From positions 310,001 to 374,000 of the forward strand of contig NZ_SBIT01000002.1 of NCBI RefSeq assembly GCF_004765785.1: a stretch of DNA of 64,000 bases. The letters are read 5' to 3'. The notes below the pieces were generated by a model. The model worked only from the letters and a program-made list of their open reading frames with translations. It did not search any database and was not told where the DNA came from. This document shows, piece after piece, positions 27,292 through 30,320 of this stretch (positions within the stretch are counted from its first letter, which is position 1; each line of letters opens with the position of its first letter). Made by a program: the position numbers and the translations under genes. The stretch is from Halorussus ruber (GTDB lineage Archaea > Halobacteriota > Halobacteria > Halobacteriales > Haladaptataceae).

Positions 27292-27936
27292 CTACATTGC
27301 TTCGGCGAACGACCGGAGGAGTTTGTTCTCCGCGCGCCGGAGGTGTTCCTCGAAGGTGCGGCGCTCGACGCCCAGTTCGGTCGCAATCTCGGCGGTGGTC
27401 GCGTCGCGGGGAATCTCGTAGTAGCCCAACTCGACGGCGGTCAGCAGGGCCTCGCGCTGGCGCGGCGAGAGGTCCGGCAGGGCCGAATCGAGCGTGAGCA
27501 GGGGTCGGTCGGCCCGGACCGACGCCACCTCGCGCTTGGCGTCCACGACGACCGGGAACTCGGCGGCCACGTCCCGGTAGAACGCGGTCAGGTTCGCGGC
27601 GTCGAGCGCCAGCACCCGACACCACTTGCGGCCCTCGGCGTACCTGAGCGGCGGCACGAGCAGGCAGTCGTGGTCCGCCAGCGTGGTCTCGATGGGGTCG
27701 TCGCCGCGCTCTTTCAGGCAGGCGTCGGTGATGAGCAGTTGCTCGTCGCCCTCCGCGATGCGCTCGCGGACGCCGACGGCCTCCTCGACGTGGGCGACGA
27801 CTTTGGCGGACTCCTCGCCGCCGACGTGAAGCAGGTCGCAGTGGTCGTTGCACCAGAGTTCGACCGTCGTGTCGGTGCCCGCGGTGGCCGCCGCGTACGC
27901 GCCGGGGTGTTCGATTCCGAGGACCGCTTCGTGCAT
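27292..27936 (-). CDS. Bat-type helix-turn-helix regulator
   Basis: Encodes 214 residues. The C-terminal 55 residues (LSPRQREALLTAVELGYYEIPRDATTAEIATELGVERRTFEEHLRRAENKLL) are the HTH_10 domain of bacterio-opsin activator-type regulators. The N-terminal 155 residues form a sensor-like domain with C29, C33, C73 and C106 that I cannot assign. GTTTAAC on the minus strand (27963-27969) gives a promoter 27-33 bases upstream. Targets are unknown. The histidine-utilisation operon starts 597 bases away in the divergent direction, so control of hut is possible but unproven. Confidence 0.9.
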   Translation of the reverse strand: MHEAVLGIEHPGAYAAATAGTDTTVELWCNDHCDLLHVGGEESAKVVAHVEEAVGVRERIAEGDEQLLITDACLKERGDDPIETTLADHDCLLVPPLRYAEGRKWCRVLALDAANLTAFYRDVAAEFPVVVDAKREVASVRADRPLLTLDSALPDLSPRQREALLTAVELGYYEIPRDATTAEIATELGVERRTFEEHLRRAENKLLRSFAEAM

Positions 27937-27987
27937 CTGACTCGGGGTTGGGGAGTCCTACAGTTAAACCGCCTTCTTCGATTTCAG

Positions 27988-28115
27988 CGATATATTTTAT
28001 AACACCAATAGCTCTATGAATAGAGGACAGTTCACATCTCGGAAGGTAGTCCCTGGTAGAGGACCAAAGCGCGTCCTGCATTTCTGTCCCAGGAAAGGGA
28101 CTACAGGAACACCTC
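27988..28115 (+). ncRNA. Candidate structured small RNA with its own promoter
   Basis: A strong TATA element (GATATATTTTATAA, about 27989-28002) precedes a foldable stretch. GTAGTCCCT (28046-28054) and AGGGACTAC (28096-28104) form a perfect 9-bp outer stem. Inside, AGGAC (28060-28064) and GTCCT (28073-28077) form a second stem with an 8-base loop. CCTGG (28052-28056) and CCAGG (28089-28093) offer an alternative pairing. ACA follows five bases after the outer stem (28109-28111). No convincing reading frame covers it. Confidence 0.45.
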
Positions 28116-28200
28116 ATAGTGTATTCACCAGTTCGTAAATATGTATTGTGTTGCACTACGGAGATAGTGTAGATATTAGCCACGGAAACAGCAATTAGAG

Positions 28201-28230
28201 CCTCGAAAGCCCTCGCGGGGTTCGCGGTCG
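28201..28230 (+). repeat. Copy 2 of the 30-bp GC-rich intergenic repeat
   Basis: 29 of 30 bases match 1126-1155. It directly precedes the larger palindromic element at 28241-28331. Confidence 0.75.
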
Positions 28231-28240
28231 CTCCGCCGGA

Positions 28241-28331
28241 TATTTGCGGGCCTCTCCGCGCCGGAAGACAAACCGCGTCTTCCGAGCCTCGCCTCACTTC
28301 GTTCGGCGAGACACCGCCCGGCCCGCAAATA
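28241..28331. repeat. Palindromic element that can form a three-way junction
   Basis: A 12-bp outer stem (TATTTGCGGGCC at 28241-28252 with GGCCCGCAAATA at 28320-28331) encloses two hairpins: CGGAAGAC/GTCTTCCG (28262-28284) and CTCGCC/GGCGAG (28288-28310). The loop of the second contains CTCACTTCGTTCG, which recurs in non-coding DNA near 45930. The remaining parts of the 27937-28532 gap show no gene; bases 28332-28460 are GC-rich filler before the hut promoter. Confidence 0.65.
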
Positions 28332-28469
28332 GGGCCGCCGGAGACGACCACGGGCCTCCGGCCCGGAACCCCGCTCGCCCTTTCAGTCCGCCAGGGGCCG
28401 GTTGTGGTGCCGAGCGAAGTACGTGGATTGCGGTATGTAGCAGAACACGCCGGTTCGGCATCTCGTGGT

Positions 28470-28477
28470 ACTTAAAC
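28470..28477 (+). promoter_or_regulatory. Promoter of the hut operon
   Basis: ACTTAAAC lies about 56-63 bases before the hutU ATG, implying a leader of some 30 bases. No operator symmetry was recognised close to it. Confidence 0.5.
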
Positions 28478-28532
28478 CACCCACCATAGGGCGGTGTTCA
28501 GGTATTTGCGTCTCGCGCCCGAATGTCACGGT

Positions 28533-30320
28533 ATGAGCGAAGGCCAACCGGAACAGACAGACGACCGAGACGGCGTACACGGCGTCGGCGAACCCAGCGA
28601 GGAGTGGAAGGAGTATCAGGGCGCGCCGACCGGCACCGACATCGAGTGTGCGGGGTGGCGACAGGAGGCCGCCCTCCGAATGCTGAACAACAACCTCGAC
28701 CCCGAGGTCGCCGAGAAACCCGAGGAGCTAGTCGTCTACGGCGGCACCGGCCGGGCCGCCCGGTCGTGGGACGCCTACGACGCCCTCCTCGCCGAACTGC
28801 GCGAGTTGGGCGACGAAGAGACCCTGCTGGTCCAGTCGGGCAAACCCGTCGGGCGATTCGAGACCACGGAGTTGGCTCCTCGGGTCCTCATCGCCAACTC
28901 CAACCTCGTCGGCAAGTGGGACGACTGGGAACACTTCCACGAGTTGGAAGCGAAGGGCCTCATCATGTACGGCCAGATGACCGCCGGGTCGTGGGCCTAC
29001 ATCGGCACGCAGGGCATCATTCAGGGGACCTACGAGACCCTCGCCGAACTCGGCGAACAGCACTACCCCGACAACGAGGGCCTCCGAGGGAAAATCGTCG
29101 TCACGGGCGGATTGGGCGGCATGGGCGGTGCCCAACCCCTCGCGGTCACGATGAACCACGGCGTCTGCATCGCCGCCGAGGTGGACGAAGAGCGCATCAA
29201 CCGCCGCATCGAGACGGGCTACTGTCAGGAGAAGACCGACGACGTGGACGAGGCCATCGAGAAGGCCAAAGCGGCCGCACAAGCGGGCGAACCCTACTCG
29301 GTCGGCGTCCACGTCAACGCCGCCGACATGCTGGAAGGGATGCTGGAGCGGGATTTCGTCCCCGACGTTATCACCGACCAGACCAGCGCCCACGACGAGT
29401 TGGAGGGCTACTACCCCTTGGGCTACACCGTCGAGGAGGCCGACGAACTCCGCGAGGAGGACCCCGAAAAGTACGTCTCCGAAAGCCTCGACACGATGGA
29501 GCGCCACGTGCAGGCCATCTTAGACCTGCAAGACGAGGGAGCCATCGCCTTCGAGTACGGCAACAACATCCGCGGGCAGGTCAAAGAGCATCGGGGGATG
29601 GAGGACGCTTTCGACTACCCCGGGTTCGTCCCGGCGTACATCCGACCGCTGTTCTGCCGCGGGAAGGGACCCTTCCGGTGGGCCGCGCTCTCGGGCGACC
29701 CCGAGGACATCCACCGGACCGACGAGGCCGTCAAGGAACTGTTCCCCGGGAAGGACCACCTCCATCGCTGGATCGACCTCGCGCAGGAGCAGGTCGAGTT
29801 TCAGGGACTTCCTTCCCGAGTGTGCTGGTTGGGGTACCAAGCAGGTGACGGCGGAGACGACGGCAAGGACGGCGACGGAGACGACCTCACCGAGCGCGCC
29901 CGGTTCGCGCTCCGAATCAACGAACTCGTCGCCGAGGGCGAAATCTCGGCCCCTGTCGTGGTCACCCGCGACCACTTAGACGCCGGGAGCGTGGCGAGTC
30001 CCAACCGCGAGACAGAAGCCATGCGGGACGGCTCTGACGCCGTCGCGGACTGGCCGATTCTGAACGCCCTGCTGAACTGCGCCGCCGGGGCCGACATCGT
30101 CTCGGTCCACGACGGCGGCGGCGTCGGCATCGGCAACGCGCTCCACGCCAACAACCACGTCGTGCTGGACGGCTCTGACCTCGCCGCCGAGAAGGCCCGG
30201 CGAGTGTTCACCACCGACCCCGGCATGGGCGTGATTCGCCACGCCGACGCGGGCTACGACGAAGCAGTCGCAGAGGCCGAGGAGTCGAACGTCGCGGTAC
30301 CGATGCGGGACCACGAATGA
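28533..30320 (+). CDS. hutU: Urocanate hydratase (urocanase)
   Basis: Encodes 595 residues from ATG 28533. Urocanase converts urocanate to imidazolonepropionate, the second step of histidine breakdown, with tightly bound NAD+ as electrophile. The NAD-binding segment [20 protein letters not shown] and the following GYCQEK are clear. The conserved active-site cysteine lies in [13 protein letters not shown] (C375). A short Asp-rich insert (about 448-461, [14 protein letters not shown]) is a halophilic surface feature. It is the first gene of hutUGIH and overlaps hutG by four bases (ATGA). Confidence 0.96.

What the first reader, a model, noticed from the sequence alone, without database searches (positions are those of the whole stretch)
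27988..28115. Candidate structured RNA with its own strong promoter between a bat-type regulator and hutU
A good archaeal TATA (near 27989-28002) is followed by a perfect 9-bp stem (28046-28054 with 28096-28104), an inner 5-bp stem (28060-28064 with 28073-28077) and an alternative CCTGG/CCAGG pairing that would compete with the outer stem. No reading frame explains it. ACA follows the outer stem by five bases, which hints at, but does not prove, an H/ACA-like guide. Competing pairings could also form a switch. The hut operon lies downstream.
Basis: partly seen in the sequence, partly recalled or inferred. Interest (0 to 1): 0.62.

Follow-up and report, generated by a model that had tools for sequence, protein, structure and literature searches.

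The report
Decayed RNA tail of accessory gene
The folded stretch next to the histidine-breakdown genes is probably a leftover: the RNA hairpins that normally follow a rare accessory nuclease-like gene of salt-loving archaea remain here, while the gene itself is gone.

Summary
By themselves they are barely above chance: fold z is -1.3, and a 9-bp inverted repeat occurs in 4% of local resamples.

The segment 28049-28153 has one homologue, in same-genus genome G006, at the same bat/hutU site. There it starts 30 nt after the stop of an intact 352-aa gene, which the window genome lacks. Relatives of that gene are sporadic in haloarchaea (16 of 392 genomes) and are followed by one or two hairpins on the sense strand. 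The two-hairpin group shows clear compensatory changes. The protein has a predicted RNase H-like fold and resembles DUF3800, a domain already linked to structured RNAs in bacteria.

In the window copy, one hairpin has lost two pairs and another is deleted. Its window-to-G006 differences are uncompensated, and the ACA is not conserved. H/ACA and hut-switch readings are therefore not supported.

Best reading: a relic RNA tail of a lost accessory module, with no evidence of function in hut control. The wider point is that haloarchaeal RNase H-fold families carry their own 3' RNAs, none of them matched in Rfam.

The parts
27292..27936 (-). bat-type HTH regulator gene (left flank)
   Evidence: ORF list; start conserved in 13 same-genus genomes
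27990..28002 (+).
   Evidence: Sequence; not in the part homologous to G006
28016..28138 (+). 40-codon ATG ORF overlapping the element, probably chance
   Evidence: frame not conserved in G006 because of indels
28049..28153 (+). Segment homologous to the 3' RNA region of the G006 module; score 88 against shuffle maximum 33
28047..28066 (+). Decayed upstream hairpin: 7/7 pairs in G006, 5/7 here (A28048-C28065 and C28053-A28060 mismatched)
28086..28101 (+). Intact hairpin GTCCC-AGGAAA-GGGAC, counterpart of family hairpin 1
28102..28109 (+). Linker TACAGGAA, like the family linker TAGGAA/AAGGAAT; the second family hairpin that follows in G006 is deleted here
28046..28104 (+).
   Evidence: MFE in window -24.7 against -12.9 kcal/mol for the two-hairpin fold; uncompensated in G006
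28200..28400 (.). GC-rich palindromic dispersed repeat between the element and hutU, 69 matches in the own genome
28470..28508 (+). hutU promoter/operator region (TTAAA-CACCC...GGTG-TTCAG), conserved in the genus
28533..30320 (+). hutU (urocanate hydratase), right flank
   Evidence: conserved ATGAGCGA start

Best explanation
28049-28153 is a decayed remnant of the 3' RNA region of an accessory protein-plus-RNA module. In the intact module a 350-aa RNase H-fold, DUF3800-like protein is followed, 20-60 nt after its stop codon, by one or two short RNA hairpins. I infer that these are transcribed at the end of the same mRNA and bound by the protein, as a ribonucleoprotein partner or for autoregulation. 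In the window genome the gene has gone, one hairpin is broken, one is deleted and one survives. No role in hut control is indicated. Shown: homology, same site, missing gene, hairpin losses, family covariation. Inferred: loss rather than never having had the gene, transcription, protein binding.
For: Window 28049-28115 matches G006 at 81% over 67 nt, the only clear hit in 392 haloarchaeal genomes (E 1.3e-9; next best 0.009). Homology runs 28049-28153, score 88, shuffle maximum 33. In G006 it lies between bat and hutU, 30 nt after an intact 352-aa ORF. That protein family occurs in 16/392 genomes and has no full-length relative in the window genome. Hairpins follow the stop in its relatives: a perfect hairpin of at least 6 bp within 21-61 nt in the 11 two-hairpin-group loci tested, against 6 of 54 window ORFs. 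Covariation: 94.8% of cells paired against 82% shuffled (0/500), 7 of 13 pairs changed on both sides, slid controls 21-56%; independent arm test 0/2000. Window hairpin losses. RNase H-like fold: pLDDT 87.5, best PDB match RNase HII, E 6.5e-4.
Against: The window copy alone scores only 8.5 bits with the family covariance model, so the link rests on one homologue. No trace of the gene's coding sequence was found upstream. G006 is not the closest relative of the window genome (hutU identity 0.873 against 0.89 for several genomes without the element), so one insertion followed by gene loss is not the simplest history; transfer of the region or several losses must be assumed. A TATA-like box in a sensible place remains unexplained.
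Confidence: 0.68

Rival explanations
1. A solo RNA that is still functional: transcribed from the TATA at 27990-28002, folding into the 9-bp-stem form, acting in trans, for example by binding RNase H-fold proteins of related modules.
For: TATA-like box 20-30 nt before a plausible start; the window fold with the long stem is stable (-24.7 kcal/mol); hairpin 1 is fully kept; the window genome holds two other RNase H-fold proteins with 3' RNAs.
Against: Two of the three ancestral hairpins are damaged; the promoter is outside the conserved segment; folding energy is ordinary; no other copies of the solo RNA were found.
Confidence: 0.13
2. A DNA-level element: palindromes acting as protein-binding sites or recombination ends, not RNA.
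For: Inverted repeats with a shared GTCCC/GGGAC core; presence or absence at one site; module neighbourhoods include an integrase, TnpB, a plasmid and a tRNA.
Against: In relatives the hairpins always lie 3' of the gene on the sense strand, two neighbouring hairpins differ in sequence, loops are 4-6 nt, and pairs covary. No terminal repeats or target duplication were identified.
Confidence: 0.09
3. The hairpins are only transcription terminators or 3'-end stabilisers of the accessory gene, and the window copy is a leftover of that.
For: Position after the stop; hairpins upstream of termination sites are reported for Haloferax volcanii (PMC7237163).
Against: The same report makes a T stretch the main intergenic signal, and the hairpins here are not followed by T runs as a rule. 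Each RNase H-fold family has its own conserved RNA, some nearly 90 nt and branched, more than a terminator needs. Not excluded for this family.
Confidence: 0.08
4. An H/ACA-like guide RNA or a switch in the hutU leader.
For: 9-bp lower stem and an ACA five bases after it.
Against: ACA not conserved (AGA in G006); ACA-to-upper-stem distance 19 or 31 nt instead of 14-16, upper stem 4-5 bp instead of 8-11, no K-turn (criteria from PMC4652768). The element is absent at hutU in 8 of 10 genus genomes with 44-45 nt spacing, and hutU has its own promoter.
Confidence: 0.02

Closest known systems
DUF3800-associated RNA motifs (Weinberg et al. 2017, cited in PMC10910872; Rfam RF02969 DUF3800-I, RF02968 DUF3800-IX and others)
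   Same: A structured RNA beside a gene for an RNase H-fold protein; several unrelated RNA structures for different protein subfamilies; function unknown.
   Different: No Rfam model matches. The protein family here is outside Pfam DUF3800 and is only bridged to it by profile comparison through a second haloarchaeal family (A2-A9 85%, A9-A10 28%, A2-A10 2%). The window copy has no gene.
Archaeal H/ACA guide RNA
   Same: Stem, inner stem, ACA nearby.
   Different: Spacing, upper-stem length, K-turn and ACA conservation fail.
Haloarchaeal 3'-end hairpins near termination sites (PMC7237163)
   Same: Hairpin shortly after a stop codon.
   Different: Family-specific, covarying pairs of hairpins; no T stretch as a rule; here not behind any gene.
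Type III toxin-antitoxin systems (protein plus RNA hairpins or repeats; from memory)
   Same: A nuclease-like protein with a cognate short structured RNA.
   Different: RNA lies 3', no pseudoknot repeats, no toxin activity known; resemblance only.

Membership tests
Haloarchaeal RNase H-fold two-hairpin RNA family (defined here) | Sequence/structure match to the family covariance model | tested here: not met
   Window 28086-28101 scores 8.5 bits, E 2.5; the G006 homologue scores 26.7 bits
Haloarchaeal RNase H-fold two-hairpin RNA family (defined here) | Descent from a member (homology and same locus) | tested here: met
   Homology 28049-28153 with the G006 module 3' region at the same bat/hutU site
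Haloarchaeal RNase H-fold two-hairpin RNA family (defined here) | Located just 3' of the protein gene on the same strand | tested here: not met
   No gene or remnant upstream in the window, no close relative in the genome
DUF3800-associated RNA motifs | Neighbouring protein matches Pfam DUF3800 (PF12686) | tested here: not met
   No Pfam DUF3800 match for any of 14 family members
DUF3800-associated RNA motifs | Neighbouring protein has an RNase H-like fold | tested here: met
   For the G006 gene: weak match to RNase HII, E 6.5e-4, TM 0.29/0.44; clearer for the sister family, E 1.2e-8
DUF3800-associated RNA motifs | Match to an existing Rfam DUF3800 model | tested here: not met
H/ACA guide RNA | Lower stem of 7-9 bp | tested here: met
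   9 bp in the window, 7 in G006
H/ACA guide RNA | ACA 14-16 nt from the upper-stem closing pair, conserved | tested here: not met
H/ACA guide RNA | Upper (GA) stem of 8-11 bp with K-turn or K-loop | tested here: not met
   4-5 bp, no tandem G-A motif seen in the sequence
cis-regulatory leader of hutU | Conserved upstream of hutU across the genus | tested here: not met
   Present only in G000 and G006; 8 of 10 genomes have 44-45 nt spacing without it
Independent small RNA gene | Discrete transcript from its own promoter | not testable with these tools
   No transcriptome available

The most novel reading that the evidence does not exclude
The solo RNA is still made from its own promoter and works without its gene, for instance by capturing RNase H-fold proteins of incoming modules (an anti-addiction or immunity RNA), within a wider and largely undescribed haloarchaeal class of RNase H-fold proteins each paired with a private 3' RNA.
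Probability: 0.08. Interest if true: 0.75.

Novelty: new variant of a known kind. Interest (0 to 1): 0.4.

Why it matters
The spot itself is probably a relic and should not be read as a hut riboswitch or guide RNA. What it led to matters more. At least four sets of haloarchaeal RNase H-fold proteins (the G006 family, the L087 family and two groups of true DUF3800 genes) carry distinct structured RNAs right after the gene, and none of these RNAs matched Rfam. To my knowledge the bacterial counterpart, DUF3800-associated RNAs, has had no function assigned since 2017; genetically tractable haloarchaea such as Haloferax and Halobacterium would make that question directly testable.

Tried and rejected
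Rfam on the window and on 24 loci: nothing relevant. Remnant of the ORF upstream of the element: chance-level matches only. First alignment A3 put the extra upstream hairpin of G006 and the window in register with family hairpin 1; the covariance model showed the true register (G006 hairpins 2 and 3), so A3 counts are superseded by A6 and by hand-paired arms. In A6 two linker bases of L047 and L059 were removed to steer the aligner. Covariance-model search of the genus: one new true module (G002, later confirmed by the protein); other hits, even at E 1e-5, lie in coding sequence, so the model is not specific enough for orphan hunting. Viral contigs by protein and by two RNA patterns: none. Phages: none. 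Plasmids: one module, no DNA match to the element. Pfam, NCBIfam, PHROGs, PADLOC: no informative match. Sigma-70 promoter scan is not relevant to archaea. The Weinberg 2017 paper itself is not held; its content is taken from the citing paper.

Full report
OBSERVATION. The fold of 28018-28125 is unremarkable (z -1.32, 19 of 200 shuffles as good), the minus strand folds as well, and 9-bp inverted repeats with gaps up to 60 are common in the window (66; 4% of local resamples hold one). A 40-codon ORF (28016-28138) overlaps the element, probably by chance. Rfam has nothing here.

COMPARATIVE EVIDENCE. In 8 of 10 same-genus genomes where both ends could be located, bat and the hutU operator are 44-45 nt apart with nothing between; two others have GC-rich filler without the element. 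Only G006 has a homologue: 81% over 67 nt, the sole convincing hit in 392 haloarchaeal genomes. Homology covers 28049-28153 (score 88, shuffle maximum 33) and stops at 28049; 27937-28045 is at chance against G006. The hutU promoter/operator is separately conserved.

WHAT IT IS IN G006. There the segment starts 30 nt after the stop of an intact 352-aa ORF lying between bat and hutU. The protein has no Pfam, NCBIfam, PHROG or solved-structure relative by sequence, is found in 16 of 392 class genomes and a few more by family searches, once on a plasmid, and has no full-length relative in the window genome. Nearly all relatives with sequence available carry one or two hairpins after the stop on the sense strand. 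In the two-hairpin group a perfect hairpin of at least 6 bp lies 21-61 nt after the stop, against 6 of 54 control ORFs; the one-hairpin group has shorter, less perfect stems and mostly fails this strict test. The two hairpins covary: 94.8% of cells paired (shuffled 82%, 0/500), 7 of 13 pairs with changes on both sides, slid controls 21-56%; an independent hand-paired test gave 0 of 2000.

PROTEIN. The AlphaFold2 model is good (pLDDT 87.5, pTM 0.87); best PDB matches are RNase HII (E 6.5e-4, TM 0.29/0.44), so the RNase H-like fold is supported but not strongly. Invariant residues include D163, D190 and D200, with D9 in the first strand in nearly all. Profile comparison links the family, through the active-site segment, to a second haloarchaeal family (A9: 85%, E 6e-6) with an IDESG motif and a clear RNase HII-like fold (E 1.2e-8). 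A9 in turn is only faintly linked to Pfam DUF3800, and direct comparison is negative. DUF3800 is an RNase H fold previously associated with putative ncRNAs (PMC10910872); Rfam holds DUF3800-I and DUF3800-IX (PMC11701678).

WINDOW COPY. In G006 the extra upstream hairpin has 7/7 pairs; in the window 5/7 (A-C and C-A mismatches). Hairpin 1 is intact (5/5 core pairs). The linker TACAGGAA is kept. The second family hairpin (GACGTCCC-GGATAT-GGGACGC) is deleted. In the window this alternative is the minimum (-24.7 against -12.9 kcal/mol), in G006 separate hairpins win. Between the two genomes the outer stem shows three one-sided changes and the inner stem a deletion, none compensated.

MECHANISM. 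Most likely a relic: the segment descends from the 3' RNA of a protein-RNA module and lost its gene and part of its fold. For the intact module I infer that the hairpins end the gene's transcript and are bound by the protein; whether as RNP, antitoxin-like RNA or autoregulatory 3' UTR is open. A pure terminator is possible (hairpins occur near some H. volcanii termination sites, PMC7237163) but does not explain family-specific covarying RNAs. History is unresolved: G006 is not the nearest relative, yet shared flanking DNA 3' of the hairpins (28122-28153) argues against two independent insertions.

LIMITS. The chain window-to-family rests on one homologue; the window copy alone is not recognised by the covariance model (8.5 bits). 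Model E-values are rough: hits at 1e-5 fell in coding DNA. No expression data.

Noticed in passing
window 28200-28400: GC-rich palindromic block between the element and hutU is a dispersed repeat with 69 matches in the window genome, MITE-like.
   Followed up: partly
L087 (G000:C3:70649-71524) and L077 (G000:C3:237152-238015): Two IDESG/RNase HII-fold proteins of the window genome, outside the window, are followed by a conserved branched RNA (CGGATGTCA...GTGAGC.ACTACCTCAC...GCATCCTCA). The family occurs in 30 of 392 haloarchaea; two helices covary (97% paired, 0/500 shuffles). Not in Rfam.
   Followed up: partly
L078, L081, L082, L083, L085: True DUF3800 (PF12686) genes of the genus are followed by one or two copies of a conserved motif CTCATACCCCTTCANTGAGGGATCATCG inside a hairpin; no Rfam match.
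   Followed up: no
L079, L084, L086: A second DUF3800 group with a different conserved sequence after the stop (TGATTGGCCTYCCACCCGCT.GCCCA...).
   Followed up: no
window 28470-28508 and same-genus loci: In compact genomes bat and hutU seem to share one TATA (TACTTAAAACACCC) followed by a CACCC...GGTG dyad, possibly an operator; conserved across the genus.
   Followed up: no
L024, L038, L039, L060: Modules of the G006 family lie beside a tRNA, a TnpB gene, a tyrosine integrase with restriction-like genes, and on a 55-kb plasmid near ParA and cas6.
   Followed up: partly
L023 (codon ~62) and L025: Two family members have an in-frame TAA in the conserved reading frame, suggesting decaying copies elsewhere too.
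   Followed up: no
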